A DNA stretch of 64,000 bases from Combretum micranthum (Eukaryota; Streptophyta; Magnoliopsida; Myrtales; Combretaceae). Under the pieces are notes generated by a model. The model saw only the letters and a list, made by a program, of their open reading frames with translations. It had not been told where the DNA came from and made no database searches. The DNA lies in the NCBI GenBank assembly GCA_024138025.1, contig JAMXBD010002850.1, positions 93,821 to 157,820 of the forward strand, written 5' to 3'. Shown one piece after another: positions 6,840 through 63,124 of the stretch. The number at the start of each line of letters is the position of its first letter. Position 1 is the stretch's first letter. The translations under genes and the position numbers were made by a program.

Positions 6840-8060
6840 AACAAAAATCAATTTTGAAAATTCGGATGAAAATGGAACCATAGTTAGAAAAGTGGTTTTT
6901 CAACTTCAAAATGTGTATTTTTCATTTAAAATGAAGGCTTAGGGTATAGATAACATAAATGAGTAATTTTGATGAGCAAATTTTAGATCTATGAGTTTAA
7001 AGTTTGTTTTCATGGGTTTCATCTAGGTGTATGTTCATATTATGTGAAGATCTTAGATTTGAACTTGAACAAAATTTGTGAAATTCGTATTTTGGCAAGA
7101 CCAATATTTAAAAACCACTTTCCAAGTGTCAAAGTGTAATTTTTTCTTAAGAAAATGAAGGCTTAATATATGAATATCATCAAGATTTCTTTTTACAAGA
7201 ATCTAATGTGATTTTCAAAATAAAAATTCTATTTTCGGATTTTGGCCAAGGCCTATTTTAAAAACATGTTTTCCAACTCAAAAATGAAGTTTTTATTTAA
7301 GAAATGAAAGGTTCTTAAGATATGATATGTAAGGAATGGATTTTCATGAGCTTAGATAGATTTTATCAAAAGATATAACTAAAAATGAATTTTGTAAATT
7401 CGGATCCCAACCAAGACCAATTTTTAAAACCCATTTATCAACTTCAAAACTCATGTTTTATGTGAAAAATGAAGTATATAGGTAATAGGTATCATTAAGT
7501 AGTGATTTTTATAAGTTGAAGGGAGTTTTGATGAGATTAAAGTGTAAAACAAGAAGTAGAAGCAAGATGGAAAATTTTGAGTTAGTAGTCAATTGTGAAA
7601 TTCGTAATTTTGAATGAAGGCCATAAGAACACCTAGTATCAAGCTCAAAATGAATGTTTTATGTGTTAAATGAAGTCCTTAGGTAATTGATATAGTGCCT
7701 TAAATTTTAATGCTTTAAACGAGTTTTTCCCAAAGGAATCATTCAAAAAGTGGATTTTCTAAAATTCGGATTTTTGAGTAAATCATATTGTAAAACATAT
7801 TTGCAAGGTGTAAAATGCAAATTTTTGTGTAAAAATGAAGTCCTTAGTGGTTATGTATGATTAAGATCTAATTTTCTAATATCAAATGATTTTTACTTAA
7901 AGGAATCACTCAAGAACCAATTTTTACCAAATTCAGATTTTGGAATCAACCCCACTTGAAAACATGTTTACCAAGTGTAAAATGGAAATTTTTATGAAGA
8001 AATGAAGGTCATAAATAGTATATATAATGAAGACTCAATTTTGACAAAAATAATTATATT
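6840..8060 (+). repeat. Degenerate tandem array, about 150-220 bp period, inside LTR-A
   Basis: Seven diverged units each carry an AAATGAAG-type core (near 6930, 7150, 7300, 7465, 7665, 7830 and 8000). The core is preceded by a 'caacttcaaaatg..tttt' segment and followed by 'attttcggatttt' variants. Unit similarity is low, so the array is old. Confidence 0.6.
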
Positions 8061-8578
8061 TTCTTAAGTAACAAATCCAAAACAAATGGAAATGATCAAA
8101 GTTAGAAAACTAGATTTTTCAAAAAGTAGTTATAGTTGAAGTCTTGCAAAATAAAGAGTTCCAAAATTTCTTTTACCAAAAATCATCAAGATCATGCATA
8201 CATGAAACTCATTTCATGCCATTCATGTTAAGAAATCACTCATATTGCATGTACAGCTAATTTATATAGTAGGAACATTACAAACATTTACAAAACTATT
8301 TTTCGGAATCGGAAACCATTACTGATCAGATCTGATCTCTCTGTTCCGAGACCTAAATGTTTTGAAAACTTGAAAATAATATTAGGAATAGATAGATCTT
8401 TTGAAGTAGATAGAAATCGATATATAATTTGCGAGATTTCGAGTTAAATGACCAAGTTATGGCCGTTTTAAGTTGGAATTCCCGCCTAGGACGCGAATTG
8501 TGAATTTGATAGTTTGAATGAGATAGTTTGGATTAGTTAAGTGATGAAATACTTATTAGAGTATTTCTTCCTTTTTAG

Positions 8579-8648
8579 GAGGTCCCGAGATCGACGGTTC
8601 CCTACCACCGAATTATTATTACTAGAAGACCGGTGATCCAATGGCCGA
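8579..8648 (+). other. Mini-exon-like block of LTR-A
   Basis: Seventy bases between a polypyrimidine acceptor (TTCTTCCTTTTTAG, AG at 8577-8578) and a donor (GTGAGTATT from 8649). The next good acceptor, CCCCAATAG, ends at 9309, giving an intron-like stretch of about 661 bp and a 407-bp tail to the LTR end. Equivalent blocks occur in LTR-B, C, D and E. Splicing is inferred from motif position only. Confidence 0.5.
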
Positions 8649-9721
8649 GTGAGTATTCTCCTTGTTTTGTTACCTTGATTGTGCTTGTAGTTAGTTGCAT
8701 TAGATTATAGGAACAAGATAAAAATCGATACGAATGGGGATGGGATATATGATGAGGTGTGATGATGTATGCCAAAATACTAAAGCATATCGAAACCACG
8801 ATTTGATTGGATAACTGCACCGTTCATATTATTTCTGTTATATGTGTGATATTGGTTGGTCACTCTAAAGAATGTATAAATATTTTTGACTTAAGCAAAA
8901 ATTAAATTGGTCATGCATCGCATCGGACATATTGCATTTGGTAGCATGCTATTCCTACGCAGGTCGATCGGTATGGTTCGTGGATGTCTCATTTGGATAA
9001 CGAAACCGGTGGCAGAGCTCATTCAGGGGTACTAAGGCGCATGTGGATGCATTCTTGGATGAGCCTAGCCGAGTCGAGTGCTAAGAGCCGAGGGCTTGGG
9101 GACTAGATGTGGTCGTGTAGACTCAATACCATTCCTAACCCAAGATACGGAGGGCGTAAATCCGTTATGTGTGTGGGTTCCGAATGCCCATGCATAATTG
9201 CTTGCTCACGTGTTTGTTCATGCATAGCATATGACTGATTTTAACTTGTTTGTTATGGTACGGAATTAAGGGAATTCTCACTAAACTAGTGTAGCTTATA
9301 CCCCAATAGTTATTTAAATGGATAGGCTATCTCAAGTATGCAAAGTGGGAACCGAATTGGTTGGAGCCGGGAATGACTTTGGGATTTTGGCAAAGAATAC
9401 GAATGATTGAAGTTATCAGCTAGTTTATGATTTGTCTTGTAATAGTTTATGTAGGGAAGTCTATGGATGAATGTAATCGAAGTTGAATGATTGTATTTTG
9501 AAGTATAGTGATTTATTGAAGTATAGTAAATTTGCATTTCCTATACATTGTTACTTAGTTGTATCAACATAAAATGTATCATTCCGATGTGTCTCCTTCA
9601 TGTGTTAGACGCTTGTGTATAGTATGGAAGCCTTCGTGTGACTGAGGTGGTCATTCTTAGGCTTTAATATTGTGTATGGCGGACTGCCACGTTTAGGGTA
9701 CCTTTGGGGTGTGACACAAAG

Positions 9722-33688: not shown

Positions 33689-34544
33689 GAAAATGTGAGC
33701 TCCGAAAAATTTCCGATTTCTGATTTCTTAAATTGTTTTGATAATTTTAATTATTATTTATTTTTTATTTTATTTTATTTATCAAATTAAGTATAAACTT
33801 CTTCATAAATTAATTTTTCTTTATTCAATTATGAATCTACTCTAAACAGTATTAATTAAAGATTTTATTTATAAATTCCTTGTCCGAATGTTGTCTGAAT
33901 ATTTGATCTTATACGATAATAATATTATTCGATTTACTATTAAAAATTTAGACCGTGCTATTTTGTTTAAATGGGATATTCCTTATTTTTGGATTAAAAT
34001 TTTCCGAGACGATTAGTCAACAAGAAATTTAAGAAGATCCATGTTGCAATTATTTTATTACATATATATATTTATATAAGATAATTGCGAAGGATAAGTC
34101 TGACAGTTGGGTTTGTTGACCACAAGCTCCCTTTGACTTTGGATTTATATATATATATATACTTAAGCTGCGGTTTCCTTCTCCTCCTTTTCTTTCTTTT
34201 TCTTTCGTTTTGGATTTCCTCTGTTTCTTTCCTTTCTTTGTTTCATTTTCTTTTCTTTTCTTTTGATCTTCTTTCTTCTTCCGTAGGAGCAGTGGTCCGA
34301 AGAAAGGTGAGCTCCTCTGTTTCTTCTTCTTCTTCTTTTTTTCTTCTTCTTCTTCCTCTGTTTCTTCTTCCTCCTCTGTTTTTCTTCTTCTTCTTCCTCG
34401 TCGCACCATCCCAGCACACCACCGCACTGCCCCAGCACCCCACAGCACCCCACCGCACCACATCAGTCGCCCAGCATCACCCAAAACACACACACCCGCA
34501 CCACCGCTCTCTGACAGAGCCCCTGCTCTGTCTTCGCTGGGCAA

Positions 34545-34715
34545 CGCTTAGCGAGCGCGCATGGAGCGCTCAGCGAGCGCTCATGGAGGGCTCGAGCTAT
34601 CGCTCGAGCAGCGCTCCAGCGCTCAGCGAGCGCTCAAGGAGCGCTGAAAGAGCGCCCAGCGAGCGCTCAGCAGCGCTCGAGCAGGCGCTCCAGATGAGCG
34701 CTCGAGCGGCAGCGG
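34545..34715. repeat. GC-rich, self-complementary AGCGAGCGCTC array in LTR-B
   Basis: About 170 bp of overlapping GAGCGCTC, GCTCAGCGAGC and CTCGAGC units, dense in CpG and palindromic, in an otherwise AT-rich LTR. It sits about 870-1040 bp before the mini-exon donor. Other LTRs have GC-rich patches of unrelated sequence at a similar place. The 242-codon frame spanning it (34085-34813) is a product of base composition. Confidence 0.8.
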
Positions 34716-35101
34716 CCACGCTGCCTCTCCTTCCCAAAGCAGCTCTGCTGCTTCTTATGGAGATATATATATATATATATATGTATATGTATATAATATA
34801 TATATATGATTAGTATATATGTATATATGTGTTTGATATATATATATATATACGATAGGTATATGTATATATGTATATATTATATACTTAAATAATTTGT
34901 CTATGTATATATGTATATGTATAAGCCCTTATATGCTATATATTTATATATTCATACTTATATATACTATAGGATATATTTATTTCTTGTTATATATATA
35001 TAATTTATGCTTTATATATATAAGAATTAAATTATTAATATAATATAAGTATGTTAATCTATTTGTTTTAATATGCTTATATATACATAGACTTAAATAT
35101 G

Positions 35102-35102
<1 letters not shown>

Positions 35103-35145
<43 letters not shown>

Positions 35146-35166
35146 GTTATTATTATTATTATTATT
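35103..35166. repeat. (TTA)n microsatellite
   Basis: About 21 nearly perfect TTA units with one G interruption, inside LTR-B. Confidence 0.95.
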
Positions 35167-35525
35167 CGTGTTTATTAAATTATTTCTTTAACCTTTCAAT
35201 ACATACTTATATATATATATATATCTATATGTTTAATTACTTAGGTTACTTGATCAAAATTTTCTTTATCCTTAATAATGATATTTTTATTTATTTAGAT
35301 ACTATTATTATTTTGCGTATATTTCATATAGCTCAAAAATAATTAGTAAACTACGTTTGTACGTATAATCTACGTTAAATCGATTTATATTAGCTATATA
35401 AGGTTTTAGTAATAGATTCTAGAATATAGGAAGTCTGTAGTAGAGATATATATATATATATATATTTATATATTAGATGTTTTAGTCAATTCTTATAGTA
35501 TATTTCCATCTTTACTTATATTCAG

Positions 35526-35588
35526 GTGATTCTGACTCTGAGCTTGATCTGCCTGTTGACTATTACGACTGACAAGAAATATGGACAG
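35526..35588 (+). other. Mini-exon-like block of LTR-B
   Basis: Sixty-three bases between an acceptor (CTTATATTCAG) and a donor (ACAG|GTGAGTATA at 35589). It contains GTTGACTATTACGACTGA. The following intron-like stretch (734 bp) ends at CTCCCTTACAG (AG at 36321-36322), leaving a 439-bp tail. Confidence 0.55.
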
Positions 35589-37037
35589 GTGAGTATATTC
35601 CTATGATCTCTATACTTGATTGTGGTTGTAGAATAGAATTAATCATGTAATCAAATATTAAGGGTTGGAAATAAACTGTGACTGTGGTTACTTGAATTGG
35701 TTAATAAAATATTGTAAGTATATTCTAACCCATTGGATGCTATAGAATAGAAATGAAAGTGTATGAAGCTTTTTGCACACCAAGTAAATAAATATAAAAC
35801 AATCTGACATAATAATTGAATACGTTCATGCATAGCATTCATGCACGTAGAAGGCCATCACCACTACACCTTGATCCGGATGGGCCGCATTGTCCCGTGA
35901 GGATGGTGAACATGGAGGACCGAAGTGGTATATACCTAGTGTGTACCATGGGCCTTGTTCTAGGGGAATGGGAACTAAGTCGTCCTGGGGAGACGGCCCT
36001 TCTCCTAGAATCGCGCCGGGTCATTGTTTCGGATTTATTACTTCACTGGGATGTTGTTATATGTATATTATTTTGATATATAAAAAGTTTTCTTGAGAAA
36101 TTTGATTCCCGAAGTATATTAATCTGGGTGCTGATGAGTGGATGTACCCCAACCCCCGGATTCGGAGGGCGCAAATCCGAATATGTATATGGTTACCGGT
36201 TGGCTATATATATTTGTTCACTTGATTGTTTGCATTGCATATGTTTGAATTAATAACTTGCTTGAATGGTATAGTGTGAGGAATATAACTCGCTGAGCCT
36301 GTGGTCGCTCACTCCCTTACAGTTTATTGTCACAGGACTATCTTTGGTACCAGTCAGGACGAGGCTACCCTCAGGTTAGCTCCCCTTTGGATTCAGGGTT
36401 TTGAGGGAAGGATACGAGGGTTGAAGAGAGTTCCTTCTTCTTTTTCCTGGGAGGGGTTTTTAAATAAATCTTTGAAACAAGATTGAAATATTTATAGGAT
36501 CAGTGACCCAACTGCTTTGTTGTATACACTCTTAAACTACTTTTCTTTTAATGTTATATTTCTGCAGTAGTTATTAAGTTAGTTTTGAGACTATTAGTTG
36601 TATTTTATATGGCTAATCTGGTACTATCAAACCCTGTGGTTATCTATTCAGGATACGCTTCTGCACAATATTATGGCTTTAAGAGATTTATGATTTAAAT
36701 CTTAAGCTGGATATTGTGTATGGCGGAACTGTCCCGTCTAAGATACCCTCGGGGCGTGACAGAAAAAATTCTAGACAACTTATATCAGGAGCAAAAAAAA
36801 AAAAAAAAAAGTATAAGGAAAGGTAAAACATATGATGCAGAAAAACTTATACACAAAAATACCCTTACAAATGGTCTTGCAGTAAGGAATAAAAAGATCA
36901 AAGAAGACAACAAAAACTGCGAGAACAGAAGCAATGTTACTTATCTTTTTAAGATCTCAATAACACACTTTGCTATGCGAATTGAACTAGGGGGATGGTG
37001 CGAGTTCCATAGCCATCTTCTCCGGATCACTTCTTGT

Positions 37038-45329: not shown

Positions 45330-45672
45330 GATCTTAATTACAAAAACTTATCCTGACAAACAAGGGTTTTGAGAATGGTCATCTTGACAGCCAATGGTTT
45401 TTGAAAATGTCACCTTGATAGATAAGGATTTTTGAAAAGGTCACCCTGATGAACAAGGATTATGGTCACCTTGATAAATAAGGGTTTTTGAAACAGTAAT
45501 CCTGATATGCAGAGATTTTGGTCACCTTTAGAGCTAAGGATTTTTTAAAAAGGTCACTTTGATAGACAAAGGTTTTGGTTATCTTGATAAACAAAAGTTT
45601 TTTGTCACCTTGATAAACAAGGGTTTTGGTCACCTTGATAGCCAAAGATTTTGGTCATCTTGATAGACAAGG
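45330..45672 (+). repeat. Minisatellite, GTCACCTTGATAAACAAGG core, left part
   Basis: Roughly ten units of variable length (about 25-45 bp) built on 'GGTCACCTTGATAAACAAGGATTTTTGAAAA'. The array continues at 52114-52400, on the other side of the inserted element E. Confidence 0.85.
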
Positions 45673-46599
45673 TAAAATAGCCATAATTTCCCAAATCATA
45701 TTTTATAAATGTGTTAATGAATTTATGCATAATCATGAAGCATGACGAATATGATTTATGTTGGTATATGATATATGTGTTGTGTTAATGTGATTAAATA
45801 TCTATATATCTTAGTGTAACTAAATATTGAGTTTATAAATTTATAAATGTAATAGAGTGTATGAAAAATTTCTTGAAACGATGTTAAATAAGTTGTAGAC
45901 ATAGCAAAAATTTAAGCTAATTAAACAAAGCCAAAACAAGCCCATTTAGTGCAAAATAAGCCCATCCCTTTTGGTAGCCACTAAAGTCAAAGTTTGGATA
46001 AATATTAGCCCTATTTGATAAAGAAAACCAACTAGAAAATTTGCCAAAAAATTTCACACAAATTTTACCCATTCTACAAGTTTCCCTTCTTGTTTCTTTC
46101 AAAACCATACACTTCAAGCCCTAAACAAGGTGAAGATCATAAGCCCAAGTGAGATCAATGGTTCAAGTGTCTTTCTTCAAAGTTTAAAGCCTCTTAAGGT
46201 ATGTGTGTTGTTTGTTATATGTATATTTGTTAGTAGACTTTCTTATGTGAAGGAGGCTTTAATGCTAAATATGAGGTTGAATGAGTTTTATGTGTTGATG
46301 ATAGTTTAAGTAGTTTATTGATGGTAAAAGAGCTAGTAGTAAAGCAAACTTGTAACTAGAAGTGTTTGGATGATTGAAGTGTGGGATAGTGGCGTTGCGA
46401 AATGTGTAGGTTAAATGAGGTTGGCGTTTGGAATTGTGTTTTATGTGTGTAGATGAGTGTTTGATGAGGTGAAGTGAAGAATTTGTATGTTAAAAGAGGT
46501 TAGAATATATATATAGGTTGAGGTTGGGTGTTAGAAATGTATTTGAATGAAGTTTGGAAATGAAAACTTTTGGCAAAAAGTGTGTCTTCGAAACAGGGG

Positions 46600-46910
46600 A
46601 GTCTACAATTTTTTCGAAAATCTGTGCTGCAGTGTACGCTACCTCAACGCCGTCAGCGTAGGGGGTCAACACTACCGATGTACACAGCAACACTGATAAT
46701 GTTTGGGGTATTCACAGGCGTGGACCAACTCCGTGGAACTCTCGGATTTTTGGAGAAAATGCAGTTGTAGTCTACACCGGCTCAACACCGCTGGCGTAGA
46801 CCACAACACTGTTGGCGTTTGTGTTAACACTACCAGCATTGGTAAGCGTAGAATTTTGGTGCAGACTACACCACCTCAACACCACTGGCATTAGAGGTCA
46901 ACGTGTCCTC
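46600..46910. repeat. GC-rich patch with imperfect CTCAACRCCGNCGGCGT repeats
   Basis: Repeated variants of CTACACCGGCTCAACACCGC, TGGCGTAGACCACAACACTG and TTGGCGTT in an AT-rich element. The style resembles the GCCGGC-rich U3 of the Tat-like LTRs at 18.8-21.7 kb and the patch in LTR-C. Confidence 0.6.
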
Positions 46911-47124
46911 TACAGTTTTCTATTTTCAAAACTTCTTCAAAACCAATCTTTTAGCTTGTTAAATTGTCCTTTGAGTATTTGTTGAGCATGTATGATGTAT
47001 AAATACTATGTTAAGATCTTGCGTTAAATTTATTTGAATTTCTTTGAGTGTTTTGCTTAGATATTTAATGTTTATGCATGACTTAAAATTAGAATATTGA
47101 TTTGAGATGATTTTCTTGGAACAG

Positions 47125-47172
47125 TGATAGATCCCCGCTTGGCTACCCCTATTAATTCCCAATTTGATTCAG
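47125..47172 (+). other. Mini-exon-like block of element E
   Basis: Forty-eight bases between TTTTCTTGGAACAG and CAG|GTACGTAG. The next acceptor is at 51625-51626. Subtracting LTR-C (3.8 kb), the intron-like stretch is about 630 bp and the tail 487 bp, as in A to D. Confidence 0.45.
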
Positions 47173-48944
47173 GTACGTAGTAACCTGCTTGTTTTTTGCC
47201 TAGGATAGGCATGATCAAATTTACTCTAAATTATGAAAACTTAAATTTTGTTTGAATTGGTTGTTTATTATGCTGTTGAATTTGTTCGGGATATAGACCC
47301 CGAAAAAATTTCACAATAGTACACGACACTAGAATAGAAAAATACGAATTAATTAGTAAATCTAGAATTCAACAAAAACTCTATAATAAATCCATGAGTT
47401 AGATTAAGCTCACTTATGATTTGAACGCTTGAATAAAAACTTCTTTAACCTTATTTGATACCAAAAACGAGATTTCGTATCTTGAGCTGATAACTCAAGA
47501 TATAATTAAAAGCAACCTAAATTTTCAAACCTCGAAACTTGACATATAAGTAGAAATAGATAGAAATGTATAAATATAGAAAATAAATGGTTACTTTTGA
47601 CCTCAACAAAGACTTAAGGCTAGAACTATGAGTAAGAATGAGCCTATATATAGTTTTAAATCTTAAAAATAAAGATTCCTAGATAGTATTAAACACTACT
47701 AATAAGATTTTATAGTAGGTATCGAAAACCAAGATATAAAGATAACTTGGTTAAAGATATTAAGAGAGATAGTGAGTGAATAACAAATTATACTTATAGT
47801 TAGGAAACGATAACCTAAAGATAAACCGTTGGGTTATAAATACACAATAAAAACATAAATAAATGTGTAATAAATAATCTAGACTCCAAATAAATATTTA
47901 GATCACACCAATGTTTTAGTTATGATATTCTTAATCTAGTGGAGCCTAAAACAAAAATTGACTTAATAAGCTTAGAAAATCTTAATCATGGGAGATAAAA
48001 TTTTAAAAATAATTAATCGCATAAACTTTAAACCTAAATATAAACTTAATGATAATCTAGAAAATTTGTAAAACTCTAAATGAATTTTTGAACATAAAAC
48101 TCTTGAATAATTGTCATAATTATACCCGGTTAACTTAATAAACTACCCTAAAATTAAGCTAATTATTAACTAGCAAATATAATAATAATTTTTCTCTTCA
48201 TATCTAGCTAAAATATGGTGTAAGTGTATGTGAATGTGTGGCTTTACTTTTCTCGGATGGTGTAACTCGAAATACCTCTCAAGTTGGTCCAATAATACAC
48301 TCTTAAGTCAACAAAATGCACACACTCACCAATCAAAGAGAGATAATTGGATAAGCTAATTAATGCTGCAAAAACTTGTTAAAAACAATGAAAAATTGGA
48401 GAAAACTAGACCAACTTCCCGGATGGAAACCGCATCATTCTTCTTCTTCTTCTTCTATGAAAACTCGTTAATGAACATAAAAGCAAGACATTAACTCACA
48501 ACAAACAACATTAGAAAACTCTCTCAATTTTGTGCTCCCAAATAACACCCAAACCACACATAAACAGCACCAAGAACAATACAACCAAACTCCATCAAAA
48601 CTCTAGCTTAAGCTCAGAATAAGGTGGAGCAAGGTAAGATAAACCCATTTTAAGTTGTTTTGAGTGTTGAACTTTAATCTAAATGATATTTCCATTAATT
48701 TAGGATCGAAACAACTAACTCTGGAACCAATCTCAAACGTCCATATTAGCCCTAACAAGATAAGACTCTAAAAACCCTAAGTTACACCACTTTCCAATCC
48801 GAAAATTTAAGATCATACACATGTTGTTGCATTAAGAGTCGATATATGTATTCATATATCACATAGAAATACTTAGGAATATTTTGAAAATAATTTTAAC
48901 GTAGGAAATTCAAGAAATATAAACTGGTTTATCGAAGAGAAGAT

Positions 48945-49215
48945 GAACAATACCAGCACCGGTCCAATGCCGGTGACTCATCAGGATAGGCCGACAATGT
49001 AAATAACCGCATAGTCTGGAACAGAAGCTACGTAAAGTTTATTTTTACATAAAATGAACAAACGTCAGCCAACTTGAATTCTACATTGGTAGTGTAGAAG
49101 TTGGCGTATGTGGTAAAGTTGGCAGCTTATGAGCCAGCGTATCCTGATACAAAATAACATGTAAAACCTATGAAAACCAACATCTTGGTATCAACGCTGG
49201 CGGCGTTAGAGCCGG
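48945..49215. repeat. GC-richer CCGG/GGCGT patch in LTR-C
   Basis: Contains CAGCACCGGTCCAATGCCGG, GTCAGCCAACTTG, AGTGTAGAAGTTGGCGTATG, GCTGGCGGCGTTAGAGCCGG and TCTCGCGCGAAG. It lies about 720-990 bp before the mini-exon donor. LTR-D has a different GC-rich sequence at the same relative place. Confidence 0.6.
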
Positions 49216-49876
49216 TGTACACACATATTATTCTCGCGCGAAGTATGTTCTATATCAACAGATTATATATATATTAATAAAAAATATTTTTTTAAGTAAG
49301 CAAATACATACAAGATTTATAAATATAATAATAATAATGATTATAATAATTGGCTTAATATTTTAAGATTATTAAACCCTAAGAGCTATAAAGAAATATT
49401 AATGTTATTAGCAATTATAATTGTAAAATATTCGTCTTACACTGACAAATGTACAAGAATGGAAATCTAGATAAGCTAAATTTATGAATAATTTGATATC
49501 TAGAAATGACAAAATAATTATATGAAATAAATTAAGAGAAACACGATGAAACTAAATAATAAGAAATAAATACTAGTTATCCTAATGTGTTAACTAAAAG
49601 AACGGTATAAAAATAGCAATAATAGTAATGATAAAAATGTTAATTTAATGAATACAACTTTTATGAACACCTAATAAAAGTATATAAATATCCGACAAGA
49701 TTAAGACAAGCAAAATGAAATAAAATATTAAATAATAATTGATTATCATAGGACCATTAAAGAACCAATACAAGTATATAGAGAAAATCAAAATCACTAT
49801 AGGGCACTTGGACACTCATAGGAGTTTAACCATATAGTTTATGTGATATTGATGAATATATTAATAATCTCAATAG

Positions 49877-49936
49877 GTGATCTTGGTACTTGTGAGGATT
49901 TTCCTGACGATTATTACTACTAGCTAACACGAACAG
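49877..49936 (+). other. Mini-exon-like block of LTR-C
   Basis: Sixty bases between AATCTCAATAG and ACAG|GTGAGTAAC (49937). It contains CCTGACGATTATTACTACTAG, equivalent to GTTGACTATTACGACTGA of LTR-B. The intron-like stretch runs 777 bp to CACTCCAACAG (50713), with a 393-bp tail. Confidence 0.55.
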
Positions 49937-52061
49937 GTGAGTAACTCAGTCTTATTACATTATATGTGCTTATCAAACTTAGTGAACCTTAAATAAATGA
50001 TAATAACCTGAGTGTACTGTATGGGTTTGTGGGAATTGTTTGTTGTATGAAATATTGATTGCCAAGTTACTCTGATAATAATAACAACAGAATTATGTAT
50101 GAGTATATTGGTTGTGTAACATGATTGATTGTCTGTGTATTGATTAATCGCCTTCAACTTGAATAAAACTACTGGTACCATAAAGGAAATTGAACATGCA
50201 TTGCATGAATAGCAAAAAGTAACATTTGAGTAAGTGGTAACCTACTACGTGCTAGTATTTTAGATCTCTGGTAATGCTTGGTTTATATAGGTAAAGAAAC
50301 TATTAGTTAATTGCAAGATTACTTTTGTTCTGTTGATATCATAGAAACTAAATGGTAAATAAATGATGCCGCTTATGGTATTGCTTGGAAATAACTAACA
50401 CTTAGTGGAGTTTCTAAAGCTAAAACAAGAAATAAGTGTTTAAGACATAATAAATTCAAAGAGAGAATTAAAGTGAGTATTGTTCTTTTCCTGAAAGCTT
50501 AGTCTCTTCTAGGTAGGTAGGGCATAGATTGTGATCCTTTAACCCCGATGAGAAGGTGTAAATATTCATCCTGCTTTGGATTTCGGATTATTCAAGCTTG
50601 TATTTGTACATGTGCTTGATTGATGCATTTCATATGATTGTTAAAAATCTTGTTTGATATGTGGTAAGTTCTGGTTATTTACTGAGCCCATGGTTTAGCT
50701 CACACTCCAACAGTCCTTTTAAGTTTACACTATGACTTGGCTCATTACTTCCAAGAGCATGGTCCCAATAAGAATTTAGAAGATGAAAGCTTATGAAGTA
50801 GTTCGGGTTAAAATATTTATTTCCGTTTCTAGTTATAAGTAGTTAGCATTTGGAACTTTAGTTATGTATTTGGAGGTTTTCTAGAAAAGTTATTGTCTGT
50901 AATATTATTACTATGACAATCTCTACTTTGGATGACAGTTATTTACTAATTTATGTCTTTTATATATATATATATATATATATATTTTTTTTATCAAAGC
51001 AACTAAAAGATCCTGTTTATTGATATGTCATTCTCAGAAGGTAAACTAGTAATAGTATTCAAGTATATCTAGTTTACTACTACTAAGATACCTTCGAGGC
51101 GTGACACGGGGAGCGGCACCTTGTCATGATGCAATGACACGGTAGTTTTAGGTGCTTAGGCCACCTCAATCATGACGCAATGACTTATATAAGTGGTACA
51201 ACAGGTAGTCGATGGGATGTTTGGTATCGGTATAACATTTGCTTAAACTTAAAATGAAGTAACATGATTAATTCGATGTTTTTAGGACTTGAATTAAGTG
51301 ATGTTATGGACTGAGATAAGTAAATATGAGAAACGGCTGAGAACCTTAGATGAGACTATTTATCATTTTCAGATATATCATCTAGGAGATATAAGTGTCC
51401 GAACAACTTATATCAACCCCCTAAGCATCGAGGTCGTTACTCAGGTCCCCTAAATATCCTCGTTGCCTGGAGTTTGAATACTTTAGTGTTGCTTGATTAC
51501 TTAAAGATTATCTAATAACCTATTGATTGTTGCATATACATATAGTTTAAGTTTGTGTGTATCACTCACCTTTGTTCTCGGTTACTTGTGCACTAGACCA
51601 TTGGCTCATTATTTTATCTCTTTTAGGAACCAAAGATGATGAATTTTATGCTACCATAGGCTATGGAATCGATTTTGAAGATTTTCTAGATGGTTTAGAA
51701 GATTAAGTTGACCAAGGACTTTATAGATTCCTTCTTTGTAATAGAATAGACTCTTTTAGGAAGATATGTAATAGACGTTACAGCTTAGTTATATCTTTTA
51801 TGTCTTTTGTATAAGGCTTGTTATTAGCCTTTGTTTGTAATATATATATACTTAGCTATGTATGTTTTAAGTTATATCTCTTATGATATGTGATGATGAT
51901 GATGATGATGTTATGTTTTTCTTGAAAGTTTTAAAAATCAATAGTTTTCAAGTTTGTTCTCATTGAGGATTTAGACAAACAATTATTCAAACACTTCTTT
52001 AAGAACAACCTTACATATGATATTACAGGTTATATGTGGTTGGGAACTCAAATTCACCTAT

Positions 52062-52097
<36 letters not shown>

Positions 52098-52113
52098 AGT
52101 GCGGGTCTTTACA

Positions 52114-52400
52114 CAAGGATTTTTGGTTACCTTGATAAATAAGGATTTTTTGTCACCTTGATAAACAAGGATTTTGGAAAAAAGTCACCCTGATAAACAG
52201 GATTTTGAAAAGGTCACCTTGATCAACAGGGATTTTAGTCGCCTTAATAAATAAGGGTTTTTGAAAAGATCACCCTGATAAACAGGGATTTTGAAAAGGT
52301 CACCTTGATAAATAAGGATTTTGGTCACTTTAATAAACAAGAGTTTTTGAAAAGGTCACCCTGATAAATAGAGATTTTGTTTAGGTCATTGTGATGGCCA
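52114..52400 (+). repeat. Minisatellite, GTCACCTTGATAAACAAGG core, right part
   Basis: Continuation of 45330-45672 after element E. Units alternate 'GTCACCCTGATAAACAGG' and 'GTCACCTTGATAAATAAGG'. The 66-codon minus frame across it has no support. Confidence 0.85.
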
Positions 52401-52790
52401 GGGATTTTGTTCAACATCCTAAGCAAGGGTAAAAAACTTGTTGGGGGTTCAAAACGATTCATCTGGTCGAAAGAAACTTTAGTTGTCAATGCACTTTGAG
52501 GAAAAGAATTTGTCAGATTCCACACAAAAGTAAGTTTGTTAACAGAGATTTGTTACTTGTTTCACCTCCACTGGGGAAGGTTGTAGTAGGGATGTATTTT
52601 AACTAGAATTTAGTGAGTCATGTTATCTTATCGGGCATACAGGAAGAGCACTCACTGGGGAGATTAATTTCACACAATGGGACAAAGTTCAGTATACTTA
52701 CCTGAATAAGAGAGATCGTGCCCATTCCACTTGCTCTTTAATTTCACAATAATCACTTTGAGGTCAAATTTTGATTTAATTGGGTACCAA

Positions 52791-53430
52791 CAGCAAGGCT
52801 CGGGGATCCATAATACAAACTTGAGCTATATTTTTATAATACAATATTGAATGCTATTCTTTTGGGAATTTCCCATGAGAAGATTATTTTCTTTCAAATT
52901 TAAGCATTTCAAGTATAACAAGCTTAACAATCATTTTAATTCACTTACATGGCTTAGATGATGTGTTATAACTAGCAATTCAATGTATCCAAAATGACCT
53001 TCACATTTTCTTGTCTCAGAATTGTCACAGGTCTGGTACCTTCTAAGTTTTCAACTGCACTTGAATAATTTTCTTCCATCCTTTCTATTGAGAGCTTTTG
53101 TTGGGATTTGTTGCAAATCATATTGTTCAAATTGTTTTGAAAATTAAATGTTTACTCTTCCCTTAACTGGTAATGAGGAGGGTTAGTCCATATAATAATA
53201 AAAGTCTCTTTTCAAGATAAGAAGTTAAGTAAAGTAGTCGTACGGAAAGTGCACGTGTGTGAGTTTTCATGAGAGTGTGATTTTGTGTGGATTTTCAATT
53301 ATGTAGAGTGAATTGGCTTACAAGAGGAAGAAGGAGGCAAGACAGTCTATCGCCATTAGTCTTTTCTTGATATCATTTTCATTCACAACAAACAAGAATG
53401 TGACAATAAGGAGATAAACCATCATTTTAT
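52791..53430 (-). other. Probable 3' untranslated remnant of a Ty3/gypsy element
   Basis: Lies on the minus strand just downstream of the integrase tail's stop codon. No coding. Candidate internal-to-LTR region of the same element; its LTR is not recognised. Confidence 0.35.
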
Positions 53431-53556
53431 TCAAGGATAATAAAGCTTTACAACATCTGCATTTATGGGGTCCCTCAGAGTTGACCCATCCATTTTAGTT
53501 AATATTAGTGCACCCCCTATCATGGATTATGGACTATGTAGGGTCCTTCATAGACT
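53431..53556 (-). pseudogene. Ty3/gypsy (Tat-type) integrase C-terminal fragment
   Basis: The minus strand reads GPYIVHNP, then after a one-base shift GGALILTKMDGSTLRDPIN followed by ADVVKLYYP and a stop. Plant Tat/Ogre-type polyproteins end their integrase with EGPY.V....GGA..L..MDG......N.D.VK.YY. Only the last 40 residues remain. At 53556 the sequence switches to copia reverse transcriptase in the same orientation, so two unrelated retroelements are joined. Confidence 0.75.
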
Positions 53557-54169
53557 TAGCAAATTTTTGACAATATATTTCATTAGTAGAACCAAATATG
53601 ATATCATCCACATATATTTGAACAATTAAAATATCTTGATCATATGATTTTAAAAACAAAGTTGTGTCAACAGTTCCTCTTTGAAATCCTTTTGAAATTA
53701 GAAATAAACTCAATCTTTCATACCATGCCCCTAGGGTTTGTTTTAAACCATATAAAGCTTTATTTAATTTGTAAACGTAATCAGGTTTGAAACATGCATA
53801 TGCAAGCATCAAACGAATTGCTTCTAATTTAGCTATAGGCGCATATGTTTCATCAAATTCTATTCCTTCTTCTTGTGAATATCCTTTAGCTACTAATCTT
53901 ACTTTGTTTCTAACTATTTTACCATCTTCATCCAATTTATTTTTGAATACCCATTTAGTTCCAATTATTGATTTTCCTTTAAGTCTAGGCACAAGATTCC
54001 ATACATTATTTCTTTGAAATTGATTTAGCTCATTTTGCATAGCATCAATCCAATTTTTATCATTTAATGCTTCATCAACATTGTTAGGATCAAATTGATA
54101 ATAATGCAAAATGATTTTCAAAATCTTGTAAACTAGCTCTTGTTTTAACACCATATTGAACATTACCAA
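53557..54169 (-). pseudogene. Ty1/copia reverse transcriptase, internally deleted and 3'-truncated
   Basis: The minus strand encodes the start of the RVT_2 domain: WIDAMQNELNQFQRNNVWNL, GTKWVFKNKLDEDGKIVRNK, RLVAKGYSQEEGIEFDETYA, then KALYGLKQTLGAWYERLS and YVDDIIFGSTNE (the YVDD active site). Between ACFK and PDYVYKL about 35-40 residues present in relatives are missing, including the MDVKSAFLNG segment with the first catalytic Asp. The frame stays open across this deletion. The sequence breaks off 13 residues after YVDD (AKSMK) and continues as gypsy integrase tail. RNase H and the 3' LTR are absent. Confidence 0.9.
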
Positions 54170-54275
54170 TTATTTGTTCAAGAGGATGAGCAGAGTTATA
54201 TTTCCAAGCCCTAGAAGTTTTTTGTTCATATTCTCTATGTTCTGGAGTACCTTCTGTATTATCTTATGGAATACG

Positions 54276-54638
54276 TTATGGGTTTCCAAATTCATAGATC
54301 TCAACAGCTGGTGCTTTAGACTTTAGTTTTGAACAAGATTCTTCTTTAAAGTTAGATTCTTTTTCATCATCAGATTCATGATCCTTTATATCAACAAACT
54401 TAACATTTATTGATTCTTCAACAGTTTTAGATGTTTTATTGAAAACACAATAAGCATGACTATTTAATGAATATCCTAAAGGTATAGCTTCAACAGATCC
54501 TTCATCAAACTTACAAAGATTAAAAACATTCTTTTTCAGAAAACATTTAGAATAAAAAATATGAAAGTAAGACACATTAGGCTTCTTACCTTTAAAGAGT
54601 TCATATGTTGTCTTGAATGTCATGGGTCGAATATAAAC
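54276..54638 (-). pseudogene. Ty1/copia integrase-RT linker region
   Basis: Encodes TTYELFKGKKPNVSYFHIFY, the conserved start of the post-integrase region (P.ELW.GKKP..S.FH.FG), followed by DEGSVEAIPLGYSLNSHAYC (DE......LGYS..S.AYRV) and an acidic linker. It is separated from the RT frame by stops and a shift (54170-54275). Confidence 0.85.
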
Positions 54639-55152
54639 TCAATTAATGATGTAGCAAGCTATAGATACTGCTTCTACCCAAAAATACTCAGTAATACCAC
54701 TTTCATTGAAAATAAATCTTGTCATTTCTTGTATAGTTCTATTCTTGCATTCTACAACTCCATTTTTTTTAGGTGTATATGGAGCAGAGAAATTATGAGA
54801 TATACCTTGTTCTTCACAAAATTTTATAAATTTTGAATTTTGAAACTTAGTTCCATGATCAGTTCTAAGACTAATTATGAAAATTCCTTTTTCATTTTGA
54901 ATTTGTTTTGCAAATTTTTGAAAGGAATCAAAAGTATCTCTCTTATGATGCAAGAATAAAACCCACGTGTATCTTGAATAATCATCAACAATCACAAGTC
55001 CATATTTACTACCACCCATGCTTAAAACTATTGTAAGTCCAAACAAATCAAGGTGTAACAATTCAAGAGATTGTTTTGTTGAAATTTCATTTTTTACTTT
55101 TGTGAGATACAAAAACCATCTTATTTTTCAAACAAATATCACATTTCACATG
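54639..55152 (-). pseudogene. Ty1/copia integrase core
   Basis: The frame at 54639-55112 shows the catalytic triad in order: HLDLFG (Asp), RTDHGTKFQNSKF (Asp) and KNGVVECKNRT (Glu; the usual ER is EC). Also present: YGLVIVDDYSRYTWVLFLHH. Upstream (55113-55152) a remnant zinc-binding CDICLKNK is separated by frame breaks. Catalytic residues remain, but surrounding stops prevent an intact polyprotein. Confidence 0.9.
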
Positions 55153-55588
55153 TCATTTAATATTTATTTTAGGCAAATCTCTTATTATATTCTTTTTAGA
55201 TAATTTTTCTAATTGATTGAAATTTACATGACCTAAACATTTATGCCACACAAAAATATTATCATTCATTGATAACAAACAACTAGCATCTTCAACTTCA
55301 TTAGGTTTTATCAAATATATGTTCTTCTTTCTAAATCCTTCAAACAATTTTATACCATTTTCATCAAAAGGAAAACATTTGTCTTTTGCAAAAACCATTT
55401 TATAACATTTGTCACATAATTGACTAATGCTCAAAAGATTATGTTTTAAGCCTTTAACTAGATAAACATTTTCTATGATATAAGGAGACATTCCAATGCT
55501 TCTAGCTGCAACAATTTTACCTCTACTATCATCTCCAAATTTCACATATCATTTTTCTTCCCTTGTTATGCTAGTGAACAATGAAGCT
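55153..55588 (-). pseudogene. Ty1/copia protease C-terminal part and GAG-pre-integrase domain
   Basis: Begins on the minus strand at TGKASLFTSITREEK, where the usual W codon is now TGA, then YVKFGDDSRGKI. GLKHNLLSISQLCDKCYKMV and WHKCLGHVNFNQLEKLSKKN follow, which is the gag-pre-integrase H/C zinc motif region. The N-terminal protease part lies 5.5 kb away (61092-61140), split by LTR-D. Confidence 0.88.
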
Positions 55589-56163
55589 TTTCCTGTAATC
55601 CCCTTAATTTTACATAACTCAATTATAATAAATATTATAAATGAAATGTAGAATCATAAAAGAACTATAATAAAAAATTAGAAATCACTCCAAATTTGTC
55701 GTGATTTAAATTTTAAGTATAAACAAATTAGAATAAAGAATTCTTATCACTAAGATTTTAAAAATTCATAATGTTCGAAATAAAGAATAAAGAAAACTAT
55801 TTAATATTTAAGAATCTAAGTTTTAATATTCGAAACATATCAATACCTTTAAGTTAAATAATTCTCAGTCTATAGAAACTAAAATTCTGATCTAACTTAA
55901 TAACTTATAATTAGTAAAAAGAACCAAGTAACAAATATAAAATAAATAATAAATTTTTAATCTAATAAAAACTTTAGAGTAAATCTATAAATAGAAATGA
56001 ATTCATATGTAATTTCAAACCTTATAAATTTATAATAAAGTCGAATCAAGGGCAATATAATTATTAATTTATCAAAATACCACTAAACAAAGTTTTTAAA
56101 CGGATAAAAATATTTTACGATAGCAGATATAAAAGCATAAAAATAAAAACGTTAAACTAAAGA

Positions 56164-56728
56164 TTCTATATATACTATAGTATTCAAAATATTTAATATC
56201 ATTAATATGTAAATTTTTATCTAAAAATATTATAGAATCAGTATTTATCATACGTGTCATTTAGATCCACCAAATTAACTTTTTGCACTAGTTCATATTT
56301 TTGCTCACTCCTTACATAGTTGTTGGTTATAAATTTATCATCTTCTTTTTGTTTTTGTATTTCCATTCATCCCAACTCCCTTACATTTTTTTTATTTTGT
56401 TTTCACGTTTCTCCTTCATCTCATTTTTGAACTCCTACTGTACGTAACAAATGCGAAAATTAACACATATACACATATTTTCAATAGAAATTCTATGTAT
56501 ACCATAGTGTTCAGAATATTTAATAACGATAATATGGAAATTTTCATCTAAAAATATTATCGAATAAGTATTTATCATACATGTCACTTGGACCTGCAAA
56601 ATTGATTTTTTTCACAAGTTCATATTTTTTCCCACTACTTACATAGTTGTTGGTCATAAATCTATCATCTTCTTTTTATTTTTGCATTTCCATTCATCCT
56701 ATCTCCCTTACATTTTTTATTTTTTCTT
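56164..56728 (+). repeat. Direct repeat, ~240-bp copies 327 bp apart, in LTR-D
   Basis: 56164-56405 and 56491-56728 align throughout. Shared text includes CTAAAAATATTAT, GTATTTATCATACGTGTCA and CTTACATAGTTGTTGGT. An internal duplication of U3. Confidence 0.85.
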
Positions 56729-58869
56729 TTCTACGTATGGTTTACGATGAAAAATCGGAGTAGGAAGTTAGCCCTTATTTCCTAAAATTGATTATGGCAA
56801 CTTGCTTCTTGCAAATGGGACAAGTTGCAAAATTTTAGTCAAACAGAAAGTGACACCATCCAATGAAAGTCCTCCAAATATCACATAAAATTAATGAAGA
56901 TAGCTAACTCAAATAATACTTATGAAGCCGGTACAATTTTTTTTTCATTCGTAAAATGTCCATGCAAATTTAGATAACAATTTGACTTGTAAAAAAAAAA
57001 AAAAAAAAAAAAAGCTCAATCACGTAAATTTTAAAACTCAAGATTTCAACCTAAGAATAATATGGGAATATTACAGAAGCCTTAGATGAACTTTTATAAT
57101 AGAAACTCAAGAATAACTAATAAAATTCTTCGCATGTGGCTTAATATTTGACAAAATAATCTAGATATTTAATTATATAATTATTTTACTAGCTAAATAC
57201 ACCAAGTAGGTGCAAAGTGGAATAAGGAATCAGCCTTATATTCTTGAAAGAAAATTTATGCCACCTGCTTCAAGAATTAGATCAAGTTGTGGTTAACTTG
57301 AAAATAATAACCTGACAAATAATAAACATTCATTTTAGCTCTTCATTAAATGATACAAAGGAGATTCACTTTACTTGTAGTAGCAGGCACATCCTTTTCA
57401 ACTCACTGTAACTTTTAAAAAAAACAATAAACAAATAAATAAAATAAAATAACATACAATAAAATGAAAACATGAAATTGACACAATATTGTACAGTTAT
57501 TCACTTCTTGTAACCGTGAAAATCAAAGGAAAAATTATATATATTATATATAAATATATAACTTAATCAACAAATTCAATTCAATTTCTCATTGTCACCG
57601 TGACCCTTATAGGATTATAGATATAGGCTTTAATCAACAAAAGGCAACACAAGAACAACTCACATCCCACTTGTATCTATTGTTATTACTTTAGAATTTT
57701 CTAGGATTATACATAGCGAATCAAAACTAATAAAATAGATATCAAGTTGACAAGTAATTGACCACTAAAACTTCCTCTTACACAAAACTCTAACCGTGTA
57801 TACAAACCCACTTGACCCTAACATTGAAAATCAATTAAAAAAATTATTTTATTTGCTTCATCTTGTCATATAGAAATTCCAACACACATCAACATCAAAC
57901 TACAACTTGACAATTAGCGTTCTTAATAAATAAACAAATAAAACAATAATCCTCATCTAAGTCTAAAACTGCAACACACATGCCCCTCCATATAAAGTCA
58001 AGTTCAACAAGACAAATATCACTTTCTTCCAATTTCAAAACCGTAAGCTCCACTTTTCATAAGATAAATAGTATCAAAACTAAACACTACTTTGCTTCAC
58101 AATTCAATCGTAACACGATATCACAAAGCAAAACAAAATAACACCTTCCTTCATATGTTTAACTTTGAATCTCACAGCTTTTCAAAGAAAAAACTATATC
58201 AAAACAAAGTTCCAACACACACAACCTATCTCAACCATAAATTCCATGACAAAAACTCCACCTTGCTGAAGTAAATTGAAAATTCAAGAATAAAGGTCAA
58301 AGGTAAGGTAAGGTCTTAAACAAATTAATTATTCATAGAAAATTTTAAAACTTATTCTATTGTTCTTATTCATAGGTTCAGTTCTAGCAAAGGAAGTGCT
58401 TATCACTTCAAACTCCATATCTAAACAAGGTAAGCTCCAACTATCTTAAAGTCTACTTCATGTATTATATCTATGGACGGAAAAACTAGGAAAAACACTA
58501 AGTTGGATTATGAAGCTTATCAAGTGCGGTTAGACCATGTATGTATAAACAAATATTTGATGACTTGCCAAAACTTGAATCATTTATGTTCTATGCTAGA
58601 AATATGTTAAGTTTAGAGTTAAATATCATAGAGAATCAATTAGTGCAATAGGAATAACGAATTTTAAGTTTTGATCCATATGTAAATTAGGGTTTTCCAT
58701 GAATGTATTAGCCTAAAACTAGTTTAATACTTAGTAAAATGCACTTGTTATATAGTATATGGAGTAAAAACTAACAAAAAGAAACTTTAGAAACCTAACA
58801 AGGAAGTGTAACTCTAAGACCATAACAAGAATCGACTCACAAAATTTGGAAAAATTACAAATTAGCTCA

Positions 58870-59010
58870 TCCTTTCCTTTAGAACTGGCAGTGCAGAAGG
58901 CGAGGTAGAGAGCAAACAGGCCTTCCCTCCCTCCAGCATGGGCAAGGCAAAAGCCAGGGGAGAAAACAGAGCATCACCCCCCCTTCAGCACCACCCTGCA
59001 GCCCTTAGTG
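58870..59010. repeat. GC-rich patch of LTR-D
   Basis: Local GC-rich island with GGCAGTGCAGAAGGCGAGG, CAAGGCAAAAGCCAGGGG and CCCCCCCTTCAGCACCACC. It sits about 890-1030 bp before the mini-exon donor, as in LTR-B and C, but is unrelated in sequence. Confidence 0.6.
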
Positions 59011-59837
59011 CAGAAATTAAAACTCTAATTTACCTTCTTTTCCACCATGAAACCAAACCAAACTTTTAGGATTATAACTTACATACCTCGACTCTATTTT
59101 TATAAAATATATATAATATTAAATATTAAATATAATATACGTTTGATACCAACCCTGTAAATATTAGAAATTACAACCTGCAAAGATAGATAAGGTAGAC
59201 GAACGAAGAAGTAATAAAAAAATTCACTATCAATTTGGACACTAATGGAATGGAAACTTAAATAAATATATGATAAAGAAAACACCTTAAATAAAATATG
59301 ATTGTCAATTAAGAACAAGATAAGCAAAATAAAAATAAATAATAAAAATAAATATCAACTACCTTAAGATAGAAATATATTAAAAGGACGGCATAAATGA
59401 ATAAAAGCTTGATAACAAAATTTTTAAGCAAAACAAAACTTAAAATATTCTATGACAATTACCGGTACTCATAGAATAAATAAAACTTACAGATTAATAA
59501 AATTAAGTCAATTATTATACAATACTCAAAATAAGTTTTCTAAACGCCTAAACATACGCTAAAATGGAGTTAAAATAAAAATAACAGACCTAGTCTAAAA
59601 TTATACAATTAAAGTTAGTACCTATAATTTTTAGGAAGACTTCTCTTACAAAAAATGTGTTTACATGGATTTTCTGACAATGTTAAATAAGGACAACCCT
59701 TTAAAATTTGAAACTCCTACCTAGGGAAAACAAAGTGAATTAAAAAGAGTGAAACTTAAATTTAGGACACAAAAAGTGCAACCAAAAGCATTATGAATAA
59801 TAGTGTAATATTAAATAGCTGCTATCTCATTTTATAG

Positions 59838-59900
59838 GAAAAATATAACTAGTTCTTGGAATCCCAGTAGCTTACTACGACAAATTAATAAGGACAACAG
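59838..59900 (+). other. Mini-exon-like block of LTR-D
   Basis: Sixty-three bases between CATTTTATAG and ACAACAG|GTGAGTAAC (59901). It contains GTAGCTTACTACGACAAAT, matching the TATTACGAC core of B. The intron-like stretch runs 789 bp to CCTCCAACAG (60689), with a 397-bp tail. Confidence 0.55.
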
Positions 59901-61091
59901 GTGAGTAACTTTAACCTTATCATACTATTTGTGCTTGCAGTATAGCTGCATTTATAATAATAATATATCAAACTAATATGCATGTGGGGTTTGGGTGTAC
60001 TGCATGATGTTTGTTGTATGTTTGATTGCCAAAATTATCCTTTTATAAGTGATAAGTTTATTATATGATAATTACTGTATGAAGCATATTGAAATTGTCT
60101 GTGAATTGTATGATCACCTTAAACCTGACTAAAAACTTTTGATACCGTAAAAGAAAATGATCATGCATTGCACGATTTGCATAAACAACATTTGAGCAAG
60201 TGGCAACCTACTACGTGTTAGTATTTAGCCCTCTGATAATGCTTGGTTGACCTAGGCTAAAAGCTATTAGATCAACGCAAGGTTACCTTTGAGCTGTCGG
60301 TACTATAGGAACTAAATGGTAAACGAAGGATACCGCTTATGGTATCGCTTTGAAAGGACTAACACTTAGTGGAGTTTCTTAGGCTAAAAACAGGAAATGA
60401 GAGATTTAAGATATGGTTAATTTAAAAAGATAATTAAAGTGAGTATTGTTATATTCCTGTATGCTTAGTCTCCTTTGGGTAGGTGGGTCATAGCACTATG
60501 ATCCTTCAACTTTGATGAGAGGACGTAAATCTCTATCCTGCTTTGGATTTTAGATCATCTAAGCTTGTAATGTGCATATGATTGATGTTACATTACATAT
60601 GATTGGTAATTATACTTGTTTGTTATTGTTTGATGTGTGGTTTGGTCAGGTCATCTCCCTAAGCCCGTGGTTTGCTCACCCTCCAACAGTTTTTGTGCAG
60701 GATTAATACTAGCTGGGATTGGGATAGGATTGTGTGAAGAGAGCTTCTCCAACAAACTCTATTAAAGATAGAAATATAGGATATGGTAAACTTAGAATGT
60801 AAAGTAGATAATTTTTATAATAATTTGAAATTTGTAAGTCGTAAGTTTGAAACCCATTTTCACTATTTGGTAGGGGATACCGATTCTCTGCGATCTTGGT
60901 AGAAAGTGGATAATCAGATTCCATAGTTGAAATCCAATAATATAATATATCATTTATATGAAAGACATTGATAAATAAATAGAGTTTTGTACACTCTAAC
61001 TTACAAGACGGCTCTCATATTACCAGTGCACACGTGGTATGATAGCTTTAGATTAATCCTACTAGACCCCCTTTTGAGGCGTGACATTTCC

Positions 61092-61172
61092 TATCATATG
61101 TCTGGAACATCTACTATCTTTATACCATGTTCCTTTAATTTTAGCTTCATGTTCTTGCAAAATTCAAGAGGA
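61092..61172 (-). pseudogene. Ty1/copia protease active-site region, mutated
   Basis: The minus strand reads WYKDSRCSRHMIGN up to the LTR-D insertion; relatives have WYLDSGCSRHMTG. The DSG active-site triplet has become DSR, so the protease would be dead even without the insertion. A stop lies just upstream, after PKLVWVPKKV. Confidence 0.85.
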
Positions 61173-63104: not shown

Positions 63105-63124
63105 AGCCTGCTCTAAAACCAATT
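63105..63124 (-). promoter_or_regulatory. Copia primer-binding site, mutated
   Basis: The minus strand reads TTGGTTTTAGAGCAGGC. The initiator-Met tRNA site used by copia elements is TGGTATCAGAGC, so two positions have changed (A to T and C to T). Confidence 0.7.

What the first reader, a model, noticed from the sequence alone, without database searches (positions are those of the whole stretch)
47125..60689. Conserved mini-exon plus intron architecture built into five diverged solo LTRs
LTRs A, B, C, D and E share little sequence overall, and their lengths range from 2.6 to 5.5 kb. Each nevertheless has, in order: an AG acceptor, a 48-70 bp block (70, 63, 60, 63 and 48 bp), a GTGAGT or GTACGT donor, an intron-like stretch of about 661, 734, 777, 789 and 634 bp, a second pyrimidine-AG acceptor, and a tail of 407, 439, 393, 397 and 487 bp to the LTR end. 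Donors are at 8649, 35589, 49937, 59901 and 47173. Three blocks (B, C, D) share a TATTAC(G/T)AC core. Position and splice motifs outlast sequence similarity, which suggests selection for splicing of an LTR-derived RNA. Introns in coding parts of Ogre elements are known; I know of no description of one inside the LTR.
Basis: partly seen in the sequence, partly recalled or inferred. Interest (0 to 1): 0.78.

Follow-up and report, generated by a model that had tools for sequence, protein, structure and literature searches.

The report
Polymerase's last exon hidden in LTR
In a large plant genome, the splice-flanked blocks inside several long retrotransposon LTRs look like the last coding exon of the element's own polymerase gene, which would be reached only by splicing into the downstream LTR; this is inferred from DNA, and no RNA was available.

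Summary
The interpretation needs changing. The block looks protein-coding: after the AG come two bases, 14 codons and a stop (D-x-[DE]..[LF]-P-x-D-Y-Y-[DY]-stop). pN/pS is 0.17-0.43 in that frame in the three families scored, and 0.7-3.9 in the other frames. Its phase fits a conserved donor (CAG|GTA) at the end of pol, 47-48 bp before the 3' LTR, giving ...YPHLFENS-GDFDTLEDLPADYYD* after a 1.7-2.65 kb intron. My reading: the last pol exon of these Tekay-like chromoviruses lies in the 3' LTR, and splicing chooses between two Pol C-termini. Against it: no RNA was available, no spliced genomic copies were found, three protein searches showed no spliced tail (54, 77, 87), and recent copies lose the acceptor as fast as its flank (82). 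E is another family with a tentative two-exon acidic tail. Family A's pol end was not seen. New variant of a known kind.

The parts
4685..9716 (+). LTR A (solo), TSD caaag
8579..8648 (+). A mini-exon; coding part 8579-8625, xGA-GPEIDGSLPPNYYY*
8649..9325 (+). A downstream intron (677 nt), donor GTGAGT
33694..36761 (+). LTR B (solo), TSD gaaaa
35526..35588 (+). B mini-exon; coding part 35526-35572, xGT-DSDSELDLPVDYYD*
35589..36335 (+). B downstream intron (747 nt), donor CAG|GTGAGT, acceptor TTGTCACAG|GA
47293..51106 (+). LTR C, nested inside E (imperfect TSD cggga/cgggg)
   Evidence: by eye; 5' end by comparison with relatives
48704..48759 (+). C: candidate leader exon 2 (its donor decayed to AT); exon 1 donor GTAAGA at 48634
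   Evidence: alignment, family alignment
49877..49936 (+). C mini-exon; coding part 49877-49923, xGT-DLGTCEDFPDDYYY*
49937..50723 (+). C downstream intron (about 787 nt)
55594..61086 (+). LTR D (solo), TSD tttcc, with copia coding fragments on the minus strand to either side
59838..59900 (+). D mini-exon, decayed (..GIPVAYYDK, stop lost)
59901..60700 (+). D downstream intron (about 800 nt)
45673..52113 (+). LTR E, interrupted by C; TSD caagg, inside a satellite-like array
47125..47172 (+). E block: different family; open frame xTG-IDPRLATPINSQFDS-G|
51627..51706 (+). E second exon after TATCTCTTTTAG: xGA-TKDDEFYATIGYGIDFEDFLDGLED*

Best explanation
The mini-exon is the terminal coding exon of pol and works in the 3' LTR. 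A donor at the very end of the pol ORF (..YPHLFENS G|GTA..), 47-48 bp before the LTR, is joined to the acceptor of the mini-exon (AG|GT GAY ..), removing the polypurine tract, U3 and the front of R (1.7-2.65 kb). This adds an acidic tail, GDFDTLEDLPADYYD*. A second, 3'-UTR intron (about 0.65-0.8 kb) follows the stop. In the 5' LTR the same exon would fall in the leader, behind two candidate leader exons. Unspliced RNA keeps what reverse transcription needs and ends Pol as ..GTHSSFEDKAYFKGRRM*. Spliced RNA lacks the polypurine tract and U3, so it could serve only as mRNA. Shown: motif, phase, coding constraint, donor conservation, order within single elements. Inferred: that splicing occurs, which RNA is translated, and what the tail does.
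For: Coding constraint in the exon frame only: 13-sequence family pN/pS 0.17 against 1.11 and 1.29; A-type (4) 0.26 against 3.87 and 1.63; other C-like (8) 0.43 against 0.69 and 1.17; 28 of 30 loci were used (L015, L034 left out) and B-type had only 2 distinct rows, too few. Of the 30 loci, AG stands right before the fixed 47-nt block in 26, it starts GT in 27, has no inner stop in 27, and all three hold in 24; stops are TGA 13, TAA 9, TAG 8. The YY core and a TRR stop were part of the search pattern. Candidate exon 2 is not coding in the needed frame: pN/pS 1.16, stops in 5 of 10. Pol ends: TATCCNCAYTTN{18,45}GAGGACAAA has 219+252 hits, control 0+0; of the 100 listed, donor GT is intact in 99 and AGGT in 93 (hand count). 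Of 23 pol ends listed on contigs C1-C27, 7 have a listed mini-exon 1,698-2,647 nt downstream on the same strand. LTR nature: PBS TGGTATCAGAGC after L040's LTR; gag-like frame, RT, RNase H, integrase inside. In other plants' Pol tails 26 of the 39 that reach the place read Gly-Met or Gly-Thr there, as GGT ATG/ACN would give; their DNA was not seen and several are near-identical.
Against: No RNA. No genomic copy of the spliced pol-exon join (0 hits, control 0) nor of the mini-exon/next-exon join (23 hits against 33 in the control, none the join by eye). Protein searches showed no spliced tail: 0 of the 120 listed of 297, no candidate, none. For 16 of 23 pol ends no mini-exon is listed downstream; the patterns are exact and miss diverged copies, and the fetch to check them did not complete. 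A-type: 6 places, LTR start seen in 4, no pol beside it. Recent copies lose AG as fast as the flank, and codon positions 1 and 2 differ no less than the upstream intron. Donor and acceptor phases could agree by chance (1 in 3).
Confidence: 0.72

Rival explanations
1. The mini-exon encodes the end of a separate small protein made from an LTR transcript, with its start in exons 1-2 of the same LTR.
For: Candidate exons 1 and 2 with good splice sites lie upstream in the same LTR, and a frame through exon 2 can enter the mini-exon.
Against: Exon 2 shows no coding constraint in that frame and has stops in 5 of 10 copies. Read by eye, the exon-1 candidates of the copies inspected have no conserved ATG leading into the frame.
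Confidence: 0.1
2. The block is a conserved element of the 5' leader (splicing or translation control), and the peptide is not made.
For: The block would sit in the 5' leader; 29 of 30 loci have an ATG 5-15 nt after the stop, and in several copies it opens a short frame across the downstream intron.
Against: Wobble pattern, three different stop codons, and low pN/pS in one frame only are what translation leaves.
Confidence: 0.12
3. The motif is a fossil: the frame was used in an ancestor, and present copies only inherit it.
For: The window's copies are solo LTRs, one clearly decayed; recent differences look near neutral at the acceptor; no spliced protein in the databases searched.
Against: Families with little remaining nucleotide similarity (A, B, C-like) keep the same length, phase and residues, so the constraint lasted through their separation.
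Confidence: 0.06

Closest known systems
CRM group A centromeric chromoviruses (PMC3059260, passages read)
   Same: Ty3/gypsy chromovirus whose Pol C-terminus is encoded partly in the 3' LTR.
   Different: There the polyprotein region extends into the LTR and encodes the CR motif, with no splicing mentioned (the word stem does not occur in the main text); here the exon lies 1.7-2.65 kb away and needs splicing, and the tail is a short acidic peptide.
Tekay/Del clade chromoviruses, e.g. Bongo of beet (PMC3605345, passages)
   Same: Long LTRs (about 2.6-3 kb) and a chromodomain-type Pol end close to the polypurine tract.
   Different: Splicing is not mentioned in the main text by that word stem; in the passage on Bongo3 the gag-pol stop overlaps an extra polypurine tract before the 3' LTR.
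Ogre, EVADE and BARE1 (review PMC12786077, passages; the Ogre paper is not held)
   Same: Plant LTR retrotransposons with functional introns or splicing that change Gag/Pol output.
   Different: EVADE's splicing removes the protease region; Ogre's intron, as recalled, also lies in the internal coding region. None is described in the LTR in the passages read.
Cer1 of C. elegans (PMC10309623, abstract and passages)
   Same: Ty3/gypsy element with spliced mRNA separate from genomic RNA.
   Different: The spliced mRNA encodes CERV, a separate regulator; [quoted passage not shown] no LTR exon appears in the passages read.
Complex retroviruses with coding exons in or over the 3' LTR (tax/rex, sag; recalled, no call)
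   Same: Coding sequence of the 3' LTR region reached by splicing.
   Different: Accessory proteins, not the Pol C-terminus; not plants.

Membership tests
LTR retrotransposon LTR | TG..CA-type ends with target-site duplication | tested here: met
   A, B, D; C with one TSD mismatch and decayed 5' end, E with decayed 5' end
LTR retrotransposon LTR | PBS after 5' LTR and polypurine tract before 3' LTR | tested here: met
   in relatives, not in the window's solo LTRs: L040 PBS TGGTATCAGAGC; L043, L044 purine tract then LTR
Ty3/gypsy | RT and RNase H before integrase | tested here: met
   RVT_1, then RT_RNaseH and Integrase_H2C2, then SH3_Tf2-1 in L043
Chromovirus, Tekay clade | chromodomain at the integrase C-terminus | tested here: inconclusive
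   Pfam calls none on L043/L044 pieces, but many of the 120 listed relatives carry PF00385
Chromovirus, Tekay clade | placement in the RT tree | not tested
   no reference RT set was fetched
CRM group A | Pol ORF runs into the 3' LTR and encodes the CR motif | tested here: not met
   L044 Pol frame stops at the LTR border; the exon is 2.45 kb downstream of the donor. The CR motif itself was not searched for
Spliced gene in vivo | junction-spanning RNA | not testable with these tools
   no RNA data held

The most novel reading that the evidence does not exclude
Tekay-type chromoviruses of flowering plants generally keep the last exon of pol inside the 3' LTR and use splicing to separate two RNA fates: unspliced RNA is the genome and makes one Pol C-terminus, spliced RNA can only be mRNA and makes Pol with an acidic tail. 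Different LTR families (YYD-type in A-D, a two-exon acidic tail in E) evolved or kept the same trick, and the Gly-Met/Thr seen just before FED in many plant Pol tails is the trace of the donor GGTATG/GGTACN.
Probability: 0.35. Interest if true: 0.85.

Novelty: new variant of a known kind. Interest (0 to 1): 0.72.

Why it matters
Tekay-like elements are among the common repeats of plant genomes (recalled; [quoted passage not shown] If the last exon lies in the LTR, their integrase C-terminus has been misread, long LTRs gain a reason for being long and conserved in the middle, and splicing would be a simple switch between genome and message in plant retrotransposons, which are said generally to lack introns (PMC12786077). 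It also gives a ready test: a specific junction in long-read cDNA.

Tried and rejected
Rejected: an ORF from exons 1-2 of the LTR (no coding signal in exon 2 in that frame). ORF2, starting at the ATG after the stop and crossing the downstream intron: readable in many copies but short and of uneven length; not tested for constraint, left open. Spliced-join copies as proof of splicing: none found; a spliced RNA without polypurine tract and U3 could not make a new LTR copy anyway.

Led nowhere: protein searches for the spliced tail; plant DNA in viral contigs (52 stretches matched a pattern, none confirmed); A-type pol ends (6 places, LTR start seen in 4, no pol beside it); a first unanchored donor pattern with a gap set too short (13 odd copies), whose corrected form did not complete (86, 90, 91, 101, 112). 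E copies: 3 hits, one the window itself and one identical over the letters shown; the wider search and the DNA did not complete.

The recent-mutation test does not support selection on the acceptor in present copies. Of the 100 rows listed, 93 were used: three left out are exact repeats, four differ from kept rows by a base or two and were left out by oversight.

Literature: eight full-text searches were answered. In none of the listings do title and abstract start describe a spliced pol exon in an LTR; PMC6317226, PMC3059260, PMC12786077, PMC3605345 and PMC10309623 were read as passages only. Many journals are not in the library.
Full report
What was checked. The window is C2850:93821-157820 of a 1.86-Gb genome. 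TIR-domain fragments and copia remains in the window, Ty3/gypsy pol in its relatives and the named relatives of the Pol end, all flowering plants among the names shown, point to a plant. The composite motif does not arise in shuffled LTRs (0 of 200 sets with four or more). C is inserted in E, and E sits in a satellite-like array.

The block is a coding exon. In A, B and C the block reads, from the acceptor, two bases, 14 codons and a stop: GPEIDGSLPPNYYY*, DSDSELDLPVDYYD*, DLGTCEDFPDDYYY*. D is decayed. A pattern for this core plus the donor has 2,375 hits in the genome against 35 for its reversed control. In the 30 loci cut out, AG stands right before the fixed 47-nt block in 26, the block begins GT in 27 and is free of inner stops in 27; all three hold in 24. 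The core and a TRR stop were part of the pattern; the 11 codons before it were not. In those 11 codons synonymous sites vary far more than non-synonymous ones in this frame (pN/pS 0.17, 0.26, 0.43 in three families), but not in the other two frames. Three stop codons replace each other (TGA 13, TAA 9, TAG 8). This is what translation leaves behind; a leader element would not.

Where the frame comes from. In the commonest family there is a TATA-like run, a first exon ending TTCAAAG|GTRAGT and a 55-nt second exon ATAG|GAACATAAT...GAG|GTAAAA; three other copies show like signals at the same places. Exon 2 is not coding in the needed frame (pN/pS 1.16, stops in 5 of 10; another frame gave 0.41 with stops in 1 of 10, but it does not lead into the mini-exon frame). 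The internal region of two elements ends in pol (RT, RNase H, integrase, SH3), and the last codons before the polypurine tract are ..YPHLFENS G|GTACGC (L044) and ..YPHLLQNS G|GTAAAT (L043, which has a frameshift a little before). The donor is in phase with the mini-exon. A pattern at the pol end has 471 hits and no control hit; among the 100 listed, GT is intact in 99 and AGGT in 93 (my count).

Donor and exon in one element. Of the 23 pol ends listed on contigs C1-C27, seven are followed on the same strand by a listed mini-exon: 1,704 nt (C26), 2,454 (C2), 1,770 (C6, donor context CTCTG), 2,352 (C6, second element), 1,698 (C1), 2,328 (C9) and 2,647 (C19), worked out by hand; the C2 pair and the C26 donor were checked. 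For C2, C26, C9, C19 and the first C6 element a 5' LTR copy is listed as well. For the other 16 none is listed. The mini-exon patterns are exact and miss diverged copies, so this is expected, but the DNA that would settle it was asked for and not delivered.

Outside this genome. Of 297 relatives of the Pol end, 120 were listed; 39 of these reach at least 8 residues past the YPxLF motif, and 26 of the 39 have Gly-Met or Gly-Thr next, which GGTATG or GGTACN would encode. This fits a donor kept across plants but can also be plain protein conservation; the DNA was not seen, and several of the 39 are near-identical. None of the 120 has the YYD tail, and two further searches gave nothing. Those searches cover only proteins of limited length that share exact words with the query, so absence is weak evidence.

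E. E has no YYD block. Its 48-bp block and the exon after its TATCTCTTTTAG acceptor form one open frame..IDPRLATPINSQFDS-GTKDDEFYATIGYGIDFEDFLDGLED*, again acidic and again phase 1 (frame, junction read by hand). One diverged copy on C140 keeps the second exon's frame with no gap (TKDDEFYVSMGYGSNFEDFLDGWE..). By my hand comparison 5 of 11 changed codons are silent; with one pair this is only a lead.

Against the reading. There is no RNA. No genomic copy carries either spliced join. In nearest-neighbour comparisons of 93 copies the acceptor AG differs as often as the intron beside it (0.043, 0.045), and codon positions 1 and 2 no less (0.060, 0.062), with only position 3 higher (0.108). I read this as neutral decay of dead copies over a family-level signal, but it means present selection is not shown. 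Family A's pol end was not found.

How it most likely works. Unspliced RNA carries polypurine tract and U3 and can be reverse-transcribed; its Pol ends ..FEDKAYFKGRRM*. Removing the 1.7-2.65 kb from pol to the mini-exon takes away the polypurine tract and U3, so that RNA can serve only as message, and Pol gains an acidic tail of 15 residues at the chromodomain side of integrase. The tail may bear on target choice or on integrase control; that is a guess.

Compared with what is known. CRM group A elements code into the 3' LTR, with no splicing mentioned (PMC3059260). Ogre, EVADE and BARE1 use introns or splicing elsewhere (PMC12786077; Ogre's place recalled). I found no description of a spliced pol exon in an LTR in the searches listed under Tried and rejected. 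It is best called a new variant of a known kind.

Noticed in passing
window 37861-38496 and 39095-39802, minus strand: Two TIR-domain gene fragments side by side, sharing a 191-nt direct repeat (82%).
   Followed up: partly
window about 53537-63122, minus strand: Copia-like coding fragments (RVT_2, a CCHC zinc knuckle, others) lie on both sides of LTR D, so D probably inserted into a copia element.
   Followed up: partly
window 18778-21775: A nearly 3-kb inverted repeat in eight matching blocks (86-94% complementary) around a 484-nt centre.
   Followed up: no
window 34500-34750, 46600-46900, 48950-49240, 58880-59030: B, E, C and D each have a GC-richer, partly repetitive stretch upstream of the block, with different sequence per family (by eye).
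   Followed up: no
mini-exons, e.g. 35578-35588 and 8640-8648: An ATG lies 5-15 bases after the stop in 29 of 30 loci and opens a short frame that crosses the downstream intron (B: MDRTIFGTSQDEATLRLAPLW...).
   Followed up: partly
window 45340-45672 and 52114-52400: Satellite-like array (GGTCACCTTGATAAACAAGG units) split by the E insertion.
   Followed up: no
L039 about 4730 (C2:1761730): The 5' LTR of the C2 element runs into gag-like sequence inside the downstream intron, probably by a deletion.
   Followed up: no
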